Of a stretch of DNA of 38,468 nucleotides, positions 28,265 through 38,468 are shown piece after piece. Every line of letters starts with the position of its first letter. The stretch's first letter is position 1. Under the pieces are notes generated by a model. It saw only the letters and a list, made by a program, of their open reading frames with translations. It made no database searches and was not told where the DNA came from. The DNA lies in assembly GCA_019695345.1 (NCBI GenBank), contig JAIBAE010000040.1, positions 1-38,468 on the forward strand. Direction: 5' to 3'. Origin of the DNA: Bacteroidota bacterium. GTDB lineage: Bacteria > Bacteroidota > Ignavibacteria > Kapaibacteriales > NICIL-2. The position numbers and the translations under genes were made by a program.

Positions 28265-29407
28265 TTAATTCTCCTCCTGCTGCCCGACAGGTTCTTGTGC
28301 TAATTCAACACCTTCATCGTGATGTACTTCTTCGTATAACGCCATAAACGAGTCGAAAATTTCCTCTACAGAAATATCCTGAAAATGTTTATCGGCGGTA
28401 ACTGTACACGAGCAGTGCAGCGTATTATACGGATACCACGGCATTCTATCCAAGTTGTAATGTTGGAATAACCCAACAGTTGGAGTGTTAAAGGCAGAGG
28501 CAACATGAATTAACGAAGTATCGGGTGATATAAAAATATCGGCGTCGTGAATCAACGTAGCATACTCATGAAACGAGATATTGGGCTGAACTCTGTTTGC
28601 GCCGGTTGCCTGTACAATTTGTTGCGCCTGTGTGTTGTATTCCGGCGAAGAACCTACAAACACATCTGTTTCAGGTGCATCGGATTGAATCTTTTGAATA
28701 AGCTGAATAAAATGGTCAGTACCCCAATACCGTTCCTTAACACTTCCGGATATATTTATAAAACATGTTACCTTTTTTGTGGCTTGGCTGAACAACTGTT
28801 GGTTGCGTTGTATGTCAGCTTCGTTAATTGGATAACTGGGAGCTAAGTGTATCTCGTGTGGATTGATACCAAACGGAGTTAGTAATTCTGCAATTACATC
28901 TATTATGTGATGCACAGACCTATCGGGCAAAGGAACTACATGTGTGTAAACAGCTGCATTGTCTTTTAGAAAGCCAACGGCATATGTGCTCTTCGCATAT
29001 TTTGTTATCAGAGAAGAAGTTGTTGATGTGTTGTCTATCAAATCTACTATACAATCGTAATGTTCTTTGCGGAGTTGTTGTAGTAGTGAAATGGTTGACC
29101 AAAAACCTTTTTTTAAAAGCAGAGGTTTAATACCAAATTCATTGCTGATATGTTTTGCGTTAAAATTGCTTTCGCCGTAGAGCACATGTATTTCTGCATT
29201 GGGATATTGTTCGCGAAGTGCTTTAAATACCGGCGTTGATATAATAATATCGCCAATTTTATCCTGGCGTAATAACAAGATTTTAGGATTGTGAATCTTT
29301 TCTAAAATGTCAACAGGTTCGGTAACTATTTCAACGTTAGAAGTATCATTGAACTTTGCATTTATATAGTTCCTGATGTTTATTTCAAGTTGCTTTAAGA
29401 ATTTCAT
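28265..29407 (-). CDS. Glycosyltransferase family 9 (heptosyltransferase-like)
   Basis: The 380-aa GT-B enzyme resembles lipopolysaccharide heptosyltransferases. The N-terminal motif is ILLRQDKIGDIIISTPVFKALREQYPNAEIHVL and the C-terminal sugar-nucleotide site is DIFISPDTSLIHVASAFNTPTVGLF. The N-terminus has a 35-residue extension before the core and the C-terminus an acidic tail. It follows a second family 9 gene by 8 bp. The acceptor cannot be deduced; a lipopolysaccharide core or other surface glycan is likely. Confidence 0.9.
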   Translation of the reverse strand: MKFLKQLEINIRNYINAKFNDTSNVEIVTEPVDILEKIHNPKILLLRQDKIGDIIISTPVFKALREQYPNAEIHVLYGESNFNAKHISNEFGIKPLLLKKGFWSTISLLQQLRKEHYDCIVDLIDNTSTTSSLITKYAKSTYAVGFLKDNAAVYTHVVPLPDRSVHHIIDVIAELLTPFGINPHEIHLAPSYPINEADIQRNQQLFSQATKKVTCFINISGSVKERYWGTDHFIQLIQKIQSDAPETDVFVGSSPEYNTQAQQIVQATGANRVQPNISFHEYATLIHDADIFISPDTSLIHVASAFNTPTVGLFQHYNLDRMPWYPYNTLHCSCTVTADKHFQDISVEEIFDSFMALYEEVHHDEGVELAQEPVGQQEEN

Positions 29408-31512: not shown

Positions 31513-31527
31513 AGTACTACGTATTTT
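31513..31527 (+). repeat. 15-bp inverted repeat, left copy
   Basis: AGTACTACGTATTTT is the exact reverse complement of 35025-35039. The pair brackets the tracrRNA and cas9. Confidence 0.5.
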
Positions 31528-31608
31528 TTGCTATCGCATGACCGCACCGAACCGACGATGTAAGGGCAGAAATTTTTCTGCCCCAATAATCTCACTATGC
31601 GGGAGAGA
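31524..31608 (+). repeat. Family-A covarying hairpin element, copy 8
   Basis: Flank TTTTTTGCTATCGCATGA, stem half CCGCA (31542-31546), a 51-nt interior with its own hairpin (GGGCAGAAA with TTTCTGCCC), stem half TGCGG (31598-31602), then GAGAGAA. It is the longest copy and abuts the left inverted repeat beside the CRISPR locus. Confidence 0.75.
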
Positions 31609-31729
31609 AACTCAACTAAAGTTATAACAATACGGAATCAAAAACGAGACGAGGAAATTGATGTGGTAGTAATTAGCCTATACTAAATTAAAAGGTAGGA
31701 ATGCGCAGTACAGAAGGTTGGTTTTAGAC

Positions 31730-31817
31730 AAAAAAAAACCCTGCCGAAGCAAGGTATTTGGAATCCTTCGGTGCAAGCACCTTATTATAGGAAGTGCAAA
31801 CACTGTTCTGTTACATT
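31730..31817 (-). ncRNA. tracrRNA for the type II-C system
   Basis: This RNA pairs with the crRNA repeat and is bound by Cas9. Read on the minus strand from 31817, the 21-nt block 31817-31797 is complementary to the last 21 bases of the crRNA-sense repeat with a single G:U. After a short bulge, 31791-31784 (CCUAUAAU) pairs with the first eight repeat bases (two G:U pairs). A nexus-like hairpin GGUG-CUUG-CACC (31781-31770) follows. The RNA ends on a terminator stem CCUUGC-UUCG-GCAGGG (31754-31739) and nine Us (31738-31730). It is divergent from cas9. The exact 5' end is not known; a near-match promoter box (TAAGTTCG) lies at 31830-31823. Confidence 0.9.
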
Positions 31818-31831
31818 TAGTGCGAACTTAC

Positions 31832-31839
31832 TAAATTTG
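31832..31839 (+). promoter_or_regulatory. Putative -7 box for cas9
   Basis: TAAATTTG matches TAnnTTTG, 46 bases before the cas9 ATG. It nearly overlaps the presumed tracrRNA promoter on the other strand. Confidence 0.45.
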
Positions 31840-31885
31840 CCGTACATACATAATATAATTATCAATCTTTAGCACGGAGTATTCT

Positions 31886-34800
31886 ATGGCTATCCTTTGG
31901 GGATTTGATATAGGAACCAATTCGATTGGATGGGCTATCATTAATGATACTGATAACAGTATAATTGATACTGGAGTAAGGATTTTTCAGGAAGGTGTTA
32001 ATGATACAAACACCGATAAAGAAGAAAGTAAAAATGCAACCCGCCGCCGTTTCAGGCAGTCTCGCCGGATGTACTACCGTAGGGCAATGCGCAAACAGAT
32101 GTTGTTAAAAAATCTTCGCACACTTGGATTTGCACCGGAGAGCGATGCTGAACTTCAAACTTTTTTTGATAAAGACCCATACCAAATACGTAAACGTGGT
32201 TTAACAGAACAACTGACTCGTTACGAGCTTGGCAGAGCGTTATTCCACCTGAACCAACGCCGCGGCTTTAAAAGCAACAGAAAAGTAGATGCGGGCGATG
32301 AGGAAAACGAAACAGGAGTTGTAAAGTCTTCTATCAAGGCAATTGCAGAGGAGATGCAACAAGAGCATGCTACAACATTGGGTGAACTGTTTGCCAATCA
32401 TAAATCTTCAGGTGCTAAGGTTAGAGGCAAATACACTGCCCGAAAGATGTACGAAGATGAATTTCAAATGCTGTGGACTGCTCAACAATCCTATTATCCC
32501 GATGAACTGACAGAGGAGAACCGTACAATAATTGGTGAGAAAATTATTTTCTTTCAACGTCCTATTTCACGGCAGAAAGGGAAAGACGGCAAACCACTCC
32601 CTAAAAAATCAATTGTTGGGAAATGTACCTTCGAGCCCGGTAAAATCCGAGCTCCAAAATACTGTTTGGAGTTCCAGGAATTTAGAATGTGGCAGGATAT
32701 AAATAAGTTAACGGTGTATGGTGGGAATAGAATTCACGAAGAAGACCAGCTTCTAACAGAACAAGAAACACACCTACTTTCAAGATATTTACGTACACAT
32801 AATACAATAAACATTGATCCTTCTGATAAAAGGAATAATTACAAGAGTTTTATTGAACTATTAGCATTACCAAAATTACCAAAGGGCGAATACTACCAGT
32901 TTAACCTGAAACAATTACACGGTAACACAACTATTGTACGTTTACAACATGCACTTGGCGAATCTTTGCTTACAAGATTCACACAGGAACAAATTGAGCA
33001 AATGATTCACACGCTTAGTTTTGCCGAAGACCCTGTTAAAACAGCAGAGTATGCACAACGGAAATGGAATCTATCACCGGAAGAGGCTGAAAAATTTGTT
33101 AAAGTAAAATTAGAAGAAGGATACGCAAGTGTAAGTACTCGTGCTATGAAAAAAATAGTACCATACTTACAAACAGGTCACCCATACCACGAGGCGTGTA
33201 AAGCCGCAGGGTATCATCATTCCTTAGAAGAGGATATTCCGGTAACCGGGGAAATGCCACGAGTAAACGCTAAGGAACTCCGCAATCCTATTGTTGTTGT
33301 TGCCTTAAATCAATTACGTTTAGTTGCAAACGAAATGGCACAAGAATACGGTTTACCCGATTATATTCGTGTAGAAATGGGTAGAGAATTACGGTTGCCA
33401 AAATCTAAACGAGTGGAAATTGAATTTAAGAACAGGAAATTAGATAAGGAACGGAAAGAAATTGAAGAAATATTATTAAAGGAGCCACACCTCCGTATGC
33501 AAAACCCAAGCAGAAACGATATTATAAAATATCGTTTGTGGCAGGAAACAGGTGGAGTATGTATCTATACAGGTACCGTTATTCCTTTGGAACGCTTGTA
33601 CGATAATGATGTTGATATTGAACACATATTACCCTATAGCCGCACATTAGATGACTCCCAAGCCAACAAAACAATTTGTTTACGAGAGCCAAACATTGCC
33701 AAAGGAGACCAAACACCATACGAGTGGTTACACGGCAAAGAACAATATGAAGAGCTTTTGGAACGGGTAAAACGCAGCCCAATGCCACGTAACAAGAAAA
33801 ACAAATTCTCTATGACACCAAAAACATTTGGAGAGATTAACAAGGATTTCATTGCGCGGCAGTTGAATGATACACGGTACATTTCTTCACAGGCAAGAAA
33901 TTATCTGCGTTATTTGTGCAAGGATGTAAGTGTAGGCAATGGCTCTATTACATCGTGGTTGCGGTGGCAATGGGGGTTAAATACCATCCTTAACCCCGAA
34001 GGCGATAACGAGAAAAACCGTGCAGACCACCGCCACCATGCAATAGATGCTATTTGTATTGCATTTACTTCGCGGTCAATGTATCAAAAAATGTCCACCC
34101 TCAATACATTAGACCAAATGATAAAAAACACCCGCGTAAAATATGAGTACCCGTGGGAAACATTCAGGGTTGATGTACATACTGCAATAGATAGAATTTT
34201 AGTATCGCATAAAGTGAATAAAAGAGTTCGCGGGCAAATGCACGACCAAAACTATTTTGGAAGGAAGTATATTCGAGGTACTGAAATTCCAATGGTAAAC
34301 GAAAGGGGTACACCGCGTTTTACAAAACGCATTGCAGTTCCATCGTTAAGTATTAACCAGATTCAGAATATTGTTGATACTGGAGTTCAAAAGGTTATTA
34401 TAAATCACTTACTTACCAGAGGTATCGATATTAAAAACCCTGCATCAATAAAAAAATCTGCCTACGATAATGCCCTAAAAGAAGATATTTATCTGCCAAG
34501 TAAAAAAGGCAATCCGCCACCCATCAAATCTGTGCGTGTGTTCTTCGATGAAAATTCCCTGAAACAGTTAAAGGGGTATAATGTATGGGTTAAAACAAAT
34601 GGCAATCATCATTGTGTTTTGTATGAGAAACCGGACGGAAGCCGTGATGCTGATATTGTTACATACTTTGATGCCTATAAAAAGATTAAGGAACATGTAG
34701 ATGTACATAAACACCGAAACAGCGATAAAGGCAATTTTGTTTGCTCACTTGTAATTAACGAAATGTGGTTACTTGATTATCACCCCGATGAAATCGACCT

Positions 34801-35026
34801 TAGCGATACAAAAATTAGAAACTTAGTTGCTAATAAATTGTGTAGGGTAAAAGCAATGAGTTTAATGAATCTTACTAGCAAAGTAATCTCATTGGTTAAC
34901 CATAGGGTTGCATTAGATGATAGAGCAAGTGGTGAAAAGAATACAATTTCAAAAGTGCCAAATACGTTATCAGGATTTAAAGTATCCATTTCTCCCATTG
35001 GTAGGTTATCGGTTGCAACAGAATAA
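31886..35026 (+). CDS. cas9: CRISPR-associated endonuclease Cas9 (type II-C)
   Basis: The 1046-aa RNA-guided nuclease is in the size range of type II-C Cas9s. RuvC-I is WGFDIGTNSIGWAII (Asp8). It is followed by an arginine-rich bridge helix (RRRFRQSRRMYYRRAMRKQ). RuvC-II is IRVEMGRELR (Glu497). The HNH domain has DVDIEHILPYSR with catalytic His580 and Asn603 in EPNIAKG. RuvC-III is HHAIDAICIAF (His718, Asp721). All catalytic residues are present, so it should cut both strands. The PAM-interacting region (about 800-1046) cannot be read for specificity. CGGAG lies eight bases before the ATG. A divergent tracrRNA is upstream and the array lies 0.28 kb downstream. No cas1, cas2, csn2 or cas4 gene is present. 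Confidence 0.98.
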   Translation: MAILWGFDIGTNSIGWAIINDTDNSIIDTGVRIFQEGVNDTNTDKEESKNATRRRFRQSRRMYYRRAMRKQMLLKNLRTLGFAPESDAELQTFFDKDPYQIRKRGLTEQLTRYELGRALFHLNQRRGFKSNRKVDAGDEENETGVVKSSIKAIAEEMQQEHATTLGELFANHKSSGAKVRGKYTARKMYEDEFQMLWTAQQSYYPDELTEENRTIIGEKIIFFQRPISRQKGKDGKPLPKKSIVGKCTFEPGKIRAPKYCLEFQEFRMWQDINKLTVYGGNRIHEEDQLLTEQETHLLSRYLRTHNTINIDPSDKRNNYKSFIELLALPKLPKGEYYQFNLKQLHGNTTIVRLQHALGESLLTRFTQEQIEQMIHTLSFAEDPVKTAEYAQRKWNLSPEEAEKFVKVKLEEGYASVSTRAMKKIVPYLQTGHPYHEACKAAGYHHSLEEDIPVTGEMPRVNAKELRNPIVVVALNQLRLVANEMAQEYGLPDYIRVEMGRELRLPKSKRVEIEFKNRKLDKERKEIEEILLKEPHLRMQNPSRNDIIKYRLWQETGGVCIYTGTVIPLERLYDNDVDIEHILPYSRTLDDSQANKTICLREPNIAKGDQTPYEWLHGKEQYEELLERVKRSPMPRNKKNKFSMTPKTFGEINKDFIARQLNDTRYISSQARNYLRYLCKDVSVGNGSITSWLRWQWGLNTILNPEGDNEKNRADHRHHAIDAICIAFTSRSMYQKMSTLNTLDQMIKNTRVKYEYPWETFRVDVHTAIDRILVSHKVNKRVRGQMHDQNYFGRKYIRGTEIPMVNERGTPRFTKRIAVPSLSINQIQNIVDTGVQKVIINHLLTRGIDIKNPASIKKSAYDNALKEDIYLPSKKGNPPPIKSVRVFFDENSLKQLKGYNVWVKTNGNHHCVLYEKPDGSRDADIVTYFDAYKKIKEHVDVHKHRNSDKGNFVCSLVINEMWLLDYHPDEIDLSDTKIRNLVANKLCRVKAMSLMNLTSKVISLVNHRVALDDRASGEKNTISKVPNTLSGFKVSISPIGRLSVATE

Positions 35027-35039
35027 AATACGTAGTACT
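35025..35039 (-). repeat. 15-bp inverted repeat, right copy
   Basis: AAAATACGTAGTACT overlaps the cas9 stop codon and matches 31513-31527 exactly in inverted orientation. A related GTAGTACGTAC lies near 35224. Confidence 0.5.
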
Positions 35040-35080
35040 TCGTATAGAAATATATCCCAAAGGAAGGGCATGTAAGCATT

Positions 35081-35203
35081 ATGCAGTTTACCGATAAACA
35101 ATTTGGTATGATAAAAAACTTCTGGGGATATGGCAGAAGCCAACCGGAGCGATTTGGGCAATTAACCATGTTCACCGAACAAACGGAACTGCAAATAGCA
35201 TAA
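35081..35203 (+). CDS. Possible 40-aa protein between cas9 and the array
   Basis: The frame starts MQFTDKQFGMIKNFWGYG and ends TEQTELQIA. AGGAAGGG lies about 13 bases upstream, which is rather far. It sits where cas1 and cas2 normally lie in type II-C loci and is followed by a strong terminator. It matches no Cas protein I know. It may be a real small gene, a relic or a chance frame. Confidence 0.35.
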   Translation: MQFTDKQFGMIKNFWGYGRSQPERFGQLTMFTEQTELQIA

Positions 35204-35208
35204 AAAAA

Positions 35209-35246
35209 AACGGGTACATGTTGTAGTACGTACCTGCTTTTTGGTT
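35209..35246. terminator. Bidirectional terminator between cas9 and the array
   Basis: CGGGTAC pairs with GTACCTG (one G:U) with a T-run on both sides: TTTTT on the plus strand and nine Ts on the minus strand. It would end cas9 transcripts and also right-to-left array transcripts. Confidence 0.75.
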
Positions 35247-35304
35247 GTTTTTCAAAACGTTCTTTGTTGTAACGTGTTGGGAATCAAATGTTTGTAAAAA
35301 ATAT

Positions 35305-38039
35305 AATGTAACAGAACAATGTTTGAAACCAACCTACAACTTATCGACAGGAGAGGTTTCGATGAGATTGAATGTAACAGAACAATGTTTGAAACCAACC
35401 TACAACATTGCACGAGTACCAGAATCCTGTATAATTAATGTAACAGAACAATGTTTGAAACCAACCTACAACCAATGTGATTCACTTCTCATCGCATTGC
35501 TGAATGTAACAGAACAATGTTTGAAACCAACTTACAACACATCTGTTGGTCCGATTGTAAGTGTAAGAAATGTAACAGAACAATGTTTGAAACCAACCTA
35601 CAACGTGCCGGTGTAATCTAAATCATTGTACCAAAATGTAACAGAACAATGTTTGAAACCAACCTACAACGAATAAACGATGTGCAGAAATCCGCACTAC
35701 AATGTAACAGAACAATGTTTGAAACCAACCTATAACATAGCCGCAATCTCTAAAGTGTTGTAGTCCAATGTAACAGAACAATGTTTGAAACCAACCTACA
35801 ACTATGCTGTTTTAGCGTGTTTCCGCGCCCCTAATGTAACAGAACAATGTTTGAAACCAACCTACAACTCATCGCTAACCGATGTGTATCACCCAGATAA
35901 TGTAACAGAACAATGTTTGAAACCAACCTACAACGAAGCTGACATTCATAGCAACCAACAGTTGAATGTAACAGAACAATGTTTGAAACCAACCTACAAC
36001 TAGTACTGTGACTGCGTAATTAACATGCGGAATGTAACAGAACAATGTTTGAAACCAACCTACAACACATCAGCTGAGGCAATGTTTCACGGCGTAAATG
36101 TAACAGAACGATGTTTGAAACCAACCTACAACCGGTAAGATATGTTGCTATGATAGTTACCGAATGTAACAGAACAATGTTTGAAACCAACCTACAACGG
36201 TGGCAGACATACCGTAAAGATAAATGTAAATGTAACAGAACAATGTTTGAAACCAACCTACAACCGAAAACAGTGATAGACTTGTTCAACGTGGAATGTA
36301 ACAGAACAATGTTTGAAACCAACCTACAACTGGCTCTCTCCTTACCACAATAATTGTGAAAATGTAACAGAACAATGTTTGAAACCAACCTACAACTTGC
36401 CCTCGTCGTATTTACGAACTTGTTCAATGTAACGGAACAATGTTTGAAACCAACCTACAACGGTAGTAGTGACTCTCGCATACCAAACAAAAATGTAACA
36501 GAACAATGTTTGAAACCAACCTACAACCGTAACACACCAACGCTGGGACAAGATTTAAATGTAACAGAACAATGTTTGAAACCAACCTAAAACACCTATT
36601 ACGTAGGAGTACCGATATGGCTAAATGTAACAGAACAATGTTTGAAACCAACCTACAACATGCAGGGGCTTGGTTGTTAGCGGGTTGAAATGTAACAGAA
36701 CAATGTTTGAAACCAACCTACAACCACCGTATGTTGCAGGGTTGGGTAAGGTAAAATGTAACAGAACAATGTTTGAAACCAACCTACAACGGATATAGTT
36801 ATTCTGCAACTGCATATCTAATGTAACAGAACAATGTTTGAAACCAACCTACAACATACACACAGTACCCACGTGGTACTAAGGAAATGTAACAGAACAA
36901 TGTTTGAAACCAACCTACAACGTACGGGAACCTTCAAAAATCATACGCCACAATGTAACAGAACAATGTTTGAAACCAACCTACAACATCATTAAAGCGG
37001 GCATCTTCATCCATAAAATGTAACAAAACAATGTTTGAAACCAACCTACAACGTTATAATTCATTAGTACACCTCACCCTTGAATGTAACAGAACAATGT
37101 TTGAAACCAACCTACAACAAACAAGATTGAAAATGATAAAGCAATCTTAATGTAACAGAACAATGTTTGAAACCAACCTACAACGAAACGAACGGCAACT
37201 AAAAGAATCGTTAAATGTAACAGAACAATGTTTGAAACCAACCTACAACACGGCAAACATATTGTATCGGCAAGCAGTCAATGTAACAGAACAATGTTTG
37301 AAACCAACCTACAACTCAATCTTGATTGAGTCATCTACACCGTTTAATGTAACAGAACAATGTTTGAAACCAACCTACAACTACACAGAAGTCCTCCCCT
37401 CTTTTGCATACAATGTAACAGAACAATGTTTGAAACCAACCTACAACCATAACAGCCAAACAAACAAGAAGAAAGGGAATGTAACAGAACAATGTTTGAA
37501 ACCAACCTACAACAGAATTCGGCAAGCGAGCAACACAAACATTAATGTAACAGAACAATGTTTGAAACCAACCTACAACTGATGTGGATTTGAACTCTGT
37601 TGTTGGTTTAATGTAACAGAACAATGTTTGAAACCAACCTACAACACTGTCATCATAAAAACACACATACACCTAATGTAACAGAACAATGTTTGAAACC
37701 AACCTACAACTCAATAAACGTTGCCAAAGCTGCCAAATCTAATGTAACAGAACAATGTTTGAAACCAACCTACAACCGTTGTATGTCTTTGGGTTCGGCG
37801 GGTGATAATGTAACAGAACAATGTTTGAAACCAACCTACAACCCAAGCGTTGTATATCCTGCCGCCGTGTTTAATGTAACAGAACAATGTTTGAAACCAA
37901 CCTACAACAAACTCATAAAAACACCTACCAAAAATTAAATGTAACAGAACAATGTTTGAAACCAACCTACAACCCTTTCTCAGCAAAAGAATCCAGAAAC
38001 CCGAATGTAACAGAACAATGTTTGAAACCAACCTACAAA
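35305..38039 (-). CRISPR. Type II-C CRISPR array, 42 repeats and 41 spacers
   Basis: The repeats are 36 bp. In crRNA sense (minus strand) they begin GTTGTAGGTTGG and end TGTTCTGTTACATT. Of the 41 spacers, 34 are 30 nt and seven are 29 nt; I saw no duplicated spacer. Repeats with one base change are numbers 4, 7, 13, 18, 20 and 27, counted from the cas9 side, and repeats 28-41 are identical. Repeat 42 differs only at its outermost base. The conservation gradient and the tracrRNA pairing both put the leader on the right, with transcription toward cas9. Apparent open frames inside the array are products of the repeat period. Confidence 0.99.
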
Positions 38040-38255: not shown

Positions 38256-38318
38256 TCCCCGGCACACCACCACTCTGTTAATGTCACGCCGCTCGGTGCC
38301 GTCCCGCGATAGCAGAAA
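38254..38318 (-). repeat. Family-A covarying hairpin element, copy 9
   Basis: Read on the minus strand: flank TTCTGCTATCGCGGGA, stem half CGGCA (38301-38297), a 32-nt interior, stem half TGCCG (38264-38260), then GGGAGAG. Its 3' edge touches the tRNA-Thr fragment. Confidence 0.75.
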
Positions 38319-38361
38319 ATTATTTAGAATGATTGACGGATTGCAAGAAACCGTTATCTTC

Positions 38362-38468
38362 GCGGCGAAACAATGACGGTGCCGAGGCACAATGCCTTGG
38401 AGAATAGGGAATCCCGTGAAAATCGGGAACGGTTGCGCCGCTGTAATGGCCGACAAATCTCATATGCC
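38362..38468 (+). promoter_or_regulatory. Cobalamin riboswitch (cut by window end)
   Basis: The conserved core GGGAATCCCGTGAAAATCGGG and B12-box-like GCGCCGCTGTAATGG are present, after a GGTGCC-containing 5' part (split across fields of the consensus). It should control a cobalamin transport or synthesis gene just beyond the right edge by binding adenosylcobalamin or a related form. Confidence 0.9.

What the first reader, a model, noticed from the sequence alone, without database searches (positions are those of the whole stretch)
31730..38039. Type II-C CRISPR locus without cas1 and cas2
Cas9 has all catalytic residues, and tracrRNA and a 41-spacer array are intact, yet no cas1, cas2, csn2 or cas4 lies between cas9 and the array or elsewhere in the window. 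The only frame in that space is 40 codons. The adaptation genes may have been lost, or may act from another locus. The long, regular array suggests acquisition was active fairly recently.
Basis: partly seen in the sequence, partly recalled or inferred. Interest (0 to 1): 0.6.

Follow-up and report, generated by a model that had tools for sequence, protein, structure and literature searches.

The report
CRISPR-Cas9 locus that lost its memory-writer
This bacterium carries a seemingly working CRISPR-Cas9 immune locus whose two genes for recording new infections were deleted, leaving a stump of one of them, so it can probably still use its 41 old memories but can no longer write new ones; similar loci are known but uncommon.

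Summary
Cas9 (31886-35026), tracrRNA (31822-31729, - strand) and an array of 42 repeats/41 spacers (35305-38039) are intact, and no cas1 or cas2 gene was found in the window or in the rest of the 99.9%-complete assembly. All 13 order relatives with a readable locus have cas9-cas1-cas2. The locus is therefore a type II-C system in which about 1.1 kb (all of cas1, first ~56 codons of cas2) was deleted, with a 13-nt filler whose only other genome copy lies inverted 3.5 kb away. Acquisition from another locus is not supported. Recent acquisition is contradicted: 6 of 40 inner repeats carry private point mutations, against 7 of 1136 in 34 comparison arrays. Cas9 shows no relaxation. Most likely it is an interference-only, frozen immune memory. 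Orphan II-C cas9 loci are known (Campylobacter), so this is a new member of a known kind with an unusually legible deletion scar.

The parts
31729..31822 (-). tracrRNA (about 94 nt, ends inferred): anti-repeat 31797-31818, terminator hairpin with poly-T
   Evidence: folding and duplex with the repeat; same position and strand upstream of cas9 in G015, G009, G024, G017
31886..35026 (+). cas9, 1046 aa, type II-C, catalytic residues intact
   Evidence: PADLOC Cas9 4.4e-107; Pfam RuvC_III and HNH_4; nearest order relatives 35-42% identical; conservation check
35027..35039 (+). 13-nt filler at the deletion junction, AATACGTAGTACT (15-nt match 35025-35039 if the end of the cas9 stop is included)
   Evidence: only two copies in the genome
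31513..31525 (-). the other, inverted copy of the filler; possible template, next to a dispersed 22-bp motif
35040..35203 (+). cas2 remnant: codons ~57 to the end, one in-frame TAG near its start, native stop lost (9 extra codons)
   Evidence: HMM 36.3 bits, E 3.7e-10 among window ORFs; best shuffled ORF 13.0 bits; whole-genome profile E 1.7e-10, only hit; alignment
35204..35304 (+). leader with a terminator-like hairpin at about 35211-35235, AT-rich up to the first repeat
   Evidence: sequence; G015 shows the same order of cas2 stop, hairpin, leader, repeat
35305..38039 (-). CRISPR array, 42 repeats/41 spacers; crRNA sense is the - strand; leader-proximal end at 35305, oldest (extra) repeat 38004-38039 with one mutation
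   Evidence: orientation from the tracrRNA and from PMC12080349/PMC6008519
28793..28822 (-). near-match (27/30) of spacer 10 in a GT9 glycosyltransferase gene, PAM-proximal 11 nt perfect
   Evidence: E 7.2e-5

Best explanation
A chromosomal type II-C CRISPR-Cas9 locus, ancestrally tracrRNA-cas9-cas1-cas2-leader-array, lost cas1 and the first ~56 codons of cas2 (about 1.1 kb) in a deletion running from the cas9 stop into cas2, with a 13-nt filler left at the junction. Cas9, tracrRNA, leader and array remain. It most likely works as interference-only immunity: the array is transcribed on the minus strand, tracrRNA pairs with each repeat, and Cas9 cleaves DNA matching the 41 inherited spacers, but no new spacers can be added. 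Shown: gene content, scar, ancestral order, excess of repeat mutations. Inferred: that crRNAs are made and Cas9 cleaves, that acquisition is zero, and that the filler was copied during repair.
For: Cas2 stump in the expected place. Intact cas1 and cas2 directly after cas9 in 13 order relatives, 12 with the array next to them; in the nearest, cas1 starts 4-8 nt inside the cas9 end, so the window lacks cas1 from its first codon. No Cas1 and no other Cas2 in the genome. In a wider sample 69 of 71 Cas9 loci with enough flank keep an intact cas1. Six private point mutations in 40 inner repeats vs 7/1136 in 34 other arrays, Fisher p 1.5e-6, rank 1 of 35. [quoted passage not shown] Cas9 deviates at 1 of 63 near-invariant positions, rank 24 of 86, so no relaxation is visible.
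Against: No close strain is held, so the deletion cannot be followed within the species or dated. No transcription or cleavage data. No protospacer was found in GenBank phages or for three spacers in IMG/VR, so present usefulness of the memory is unshown. 163 contigs leave a small chance of cas1 in a gap. At the repeat mutation load about 13 substitutions would be expected in cas9, so intactness alone is weak proof of selection.
Confidence: 0.8

Rival explanations
1. Adaptation still happens in trans, with Cas1-Cas2 from another CRISPR locus, plasmid or unassembled contig feeding this array, as VI-B uses II-C Cas1 in Flavobacterium columnare.
For: Precedent (PMC8092290); leader and first three repeats of the array are intact; assembly is in 163 contigs.
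Against: No Cas1 or second Cas2 in a 99.91%-complete assembly; no other array with this repeat; repeats of the leader-proximal half are mutated, not fresh.
Confidence: 0.06
2. Assembly artefact: the population has cas1-cas2 and the assembler collapsed or mis-joined the region.
For: Fragmented draft assembly; no reads available here.
Against: A collapse would hardly make a cas2 stump with an in-frame TAG, a changed stop and a 13-nt filler; no cas1 is found on any contig.
Confidence: 0.05
3. The whole system is a dying relic: Cas9 is no longer expressed or used and the locus is decaying.
For: Six mutated repeats; cas2 stump decaying; no phage targets found.
Against: Cas9 ORF, catalytic residues, near-invariant positions, tracrRNA and its pairing are all intact; the array still has 41 spacers.
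Confidence: 0.25
4. A naturally cas1-less II-C lineage (ancient minimal system) rather than a loss within this lineage.
For: Cas1-less II-C Cas9s form their own cluster on CampyICE1 (PMC8743540).
Against: The Cas2 stump keeps 54% identity to G009 Cas2, as much as intact Cas2s of the order share; every order Cas9 relative with a readable locus has cas1 and cas2.
Confidence: 0.03

Closest known systems
Type II-C CRISPR-Cas (e.g. Riemerella anatipestifer CRISPR1, PMC6008519; order relatives G015 and G009)
   Same: tracrRNA upstream of and opposite to cas9, ~1050-aa Cas9, 36-bp repeats starting GTTG in crRNA sense, 30-nt spacers, leader on the cas side of the array
   Different: cas1 and most of cas2 deleted; the array carries many private repeat mutations
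Orphan cas9 of Campylobacter coli and the CampyICE1 II-C Cas9 (PMC8743540)
   Same: II-C Cas9 without cas1/cas2; CampyICE1 also has arrays and tracrRNA and is thought unable to acquire spacers
   Different: CampyICE1 is a mobile element with three short arrays; this one sits in chromosomal housekeeping context (aspS, RNase P, dnaG) with one 41-spacer array and a visible cas2 scar
Flavobacterium columnare VI-B locus (PMC8092290)
   Same: effector and array without its own cas1/cas2
   Different: there a II-C Cas1 in the same genome serves it; here no Cas1 exists in the assembly

Membership tests
Type II-C CRISPR-Cas | Cas9 effector with RuvC and HNH nuclease motifs | tested here: met
   nearest solved structures are Cas9 proteins of 1082-1095 aa
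Type II-C CRISPR-Cas | tracrRNA complementary to the repeat | tested here: met
Type II-C CRISPR-Cas | CRISPR array with matching repeats | tested here: met
Type II-C CRISPR-Cas | no csn2 or cas4 in the locus (distinguishes II-C from II-A and II-B) | tested here: met
   only the cas2 stump lies between cas9 and array; scanned neighbours are GT9s, aspS and others; csn2/cas4 were not searched genome-wide
Type II-C CRISPR-Cas | cas1 and cas2 adaptation genes | tested here: not met
   absent genome-wide apart from a cas2 stump
Type II-C CRISPR-Cas | Cas9 cleaves guided DNA targets next to a PAM | not testable with these tools
   needs expression or a plasmid assay
Orphan (adaptation-less) II-C Cas9 loci | intact cas9, tracrRNA and array without cas1/cas2 in the genome | tested here: met
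Orphan (adaptation-less) II-C Cas9 loci | no spacer turnover between strains | not tested
   no second strain of this species held

The most novel reading that the evidence does not exclude
A chromosomal Cas9 system kept by selection as a fixed, read-only immune memory long after losing its writer, so that repeat decay in the array works as a clock for the time since acquisition stopped.
Probability: 0.35. Interest if true: 0.5.

Novelty: new member of a known kind. Interest (0 to 1): 0.33.

Why it matters
It is a legible case of a CRISPR system losing adaptation but keeping interference: the scar fixes the ancestral state, and the array shows what a frozen memory looks like (private repeat mutations, none propagated, most in the newest half). 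Comparing cas9 constraint with repeat decay across such loci would test whether read-only immunity is maintained or is only a stage of decay.

Tried and rejected
Cas9 and the repeat in viral contigs: nothing. All spacers against GenBank phages and three spacer seeds against IMG/VR: nothing; the spacer-10 pattern: nothing. A second self-match, spacer 23 at 28875-28903 (22/29): rejected as chance, because read in the gene's frame the spacer contains a stop. L172's apparent repeat mutations: rejected as an edge-base artefact, so repeat ends were trimmed in the final comparison. Rfam has no family for the tracrRNA (one search gave only a sub-threshold istR match). The 23-nt junction string is not a dispersed repeat.

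Full report
Observation. The window is a complete contig (C46) of a 4.56-Mb, 163-contig assembly rated 99.91% complete. It holds a 1046-aa Cas9 (31886-35026), a tracrRNA on the minus strand just upstream (anti-repeat 31797-31818, ending in a poly-T hairpin) and an array of 42 repeats and 41 unique spacers at 35305-38039. The repeat occurs nowhere else in the genome. Pfam Cas1 and Cas2 give no hit in the genome, and a Cas1 profile made from order relatives gives none even at E<=10. The same Pfam Cas1 search finds Cas1 in 33 of 60 relatives, including all the Cas9-bearing ones except G054, whose cas9 is cut by a contig end. The stated observation is confirmed. The contig ends 429 bp beyond the array in a cobalamin riboswitch.

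The missed piece. A profile from 76 Cas2 sequences, built without the window, scores it 36.3 bits (E 3.7e-10 among window ORFs); the best of twenty shuffled ORF sets scores 13.0 bits. An order-level Cas2 profile finds exactly one match in the whole genome, at 35039-35173 (E 1.7e-10), with one TAG inside. The stump reads V*KYIPKEGHVSIMQFTDKQFGMIKNFWGYGRSQPERFGQLTMF and then runs 9 codons past the usual Cas2 end. It begins about 13 nt after the cas9 stop.

Ancestral state. In the order, 13 Cas9 relatives with a readable locus carry intact cas1 and cas2 after cas9, and 12 of them show the array next to cas2. In the nearest ones cas1 begins 4-8 nt inside the end of cas9. The tracrRNA sits in the same place and orientation in G015, G009, G024 and G017. 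Among the 80 best Cas9 loci of the genome collection, 69 have an intact cas1, nine are cut by a contig end, one has a split cas1 and one (L136) keeps only cas1 fragments, with no cas2 and no array found. So the window locus lost about 1.1 kb: all of cas1 and roughly the first 56 codons of cas2.

Junction. The 13 nt between the cas9 stop and the cas2 stump, AATACGTAGTACT, occur only twice in the genome; the other copy is inverted at 31513-31525, 3.5 kb away. With the end of the cas9 stop the match is 15 nt, and none of 200 shuffles of the junction reaches it. A filler copied from nearby during repair would explain this; that is inference. The other copy adjoins a dispersed 22-bp motif with 347 copies in the genome.

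Has acquisition been recent? [quoted passage not shown]). Here the far repeat (38004-38039) is indeed mutated, which fits. Six of 40 inner repeats carry one private point mutation each, five of them in the leader-proximal half. Thirty-four other arrays measured the same way, with edge bases trimmed, have 7 of 1136. The window array ranks first of 35; the Fisher p of 1.5e-6 treats repeats as independent, so the rank is the safer statement. The published average is 5% of non-extra repeats, against which six of 41 has p 0.016. The leader-half excess alone is not significant (p 0.10).

Is the effector still under constraint? The window Cas9 departs at 1 of 63 near-invariant columns, rank 24 of 86. 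That fits maintained function. However, at the repeat mutation load (6 per 1476 bp) cas9 would have received about 13 substitutions if neutral, so an open frame alone would not be strong proof (own estimate).

Targets. No spacer matches GenBank phages, nor do three leader-proximal seeds match IMG/VR. In its own genome only spacer 10 has a credible match: 27 of 30 to a GT9 glycosyltransferase gene 7 kb from the array (E 7.2e-5), PAM-proximal 11 nt perfect, mismatches at 12, 15 and 16. Whether this is a self-derived spacer whose target has since changed, or a spacer from a homologue, cannot be told. It would be at most a weak self-target.

Verdict. A type II-C CRISPR-Cas9 locus that lost its adaptation module by a deletion with a preserved scar, probably working as interference-only memory. 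Comparable orphan II-C loci are known in Campylobacter (PMC8743540), and adaptation-less loci that borrow Cas1 are known (PMC8092290), but no Cas1 is available to borrow here. New member of a known kind.

Noticed in passing
window 31529-31550 (-), 38293-38314 (+); genome-wide: A sharply bounded 22-bp motif TCGGTGCNGTCNNGCGATAGCA with 347 copies (<=1 mismatch, both strands about equal) in the 4.56-Mb genome and none in the reversed control; 17 of 22 copies inspected lie outside ORFs of 100 aa; not seen in the relatives' loci fetched. Function unknown.
   Followed up: partly
window 28793-28822 and 35935-35964: Spacer 10 matches 27/30 of a GT9 glycosyltransferase gene 7 kb away on the same contig, the only credible spacer match in the genome.
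   Followed up: partly
L136:11339-11642: A second Cas9 locus (Proteobacteria MAG) with only cas1 fragments, no cas2 and no array found: a further-decayed parallel.
   Followed up: no
L077:13316-14245: Flavobacterium poyangense Cas9 locus with cas1 split into two frames beside an intact cas2.
   Followed up: no
window 38360-38468: The contig ends inside a cobalamin riboswitch.
   Followed up: no
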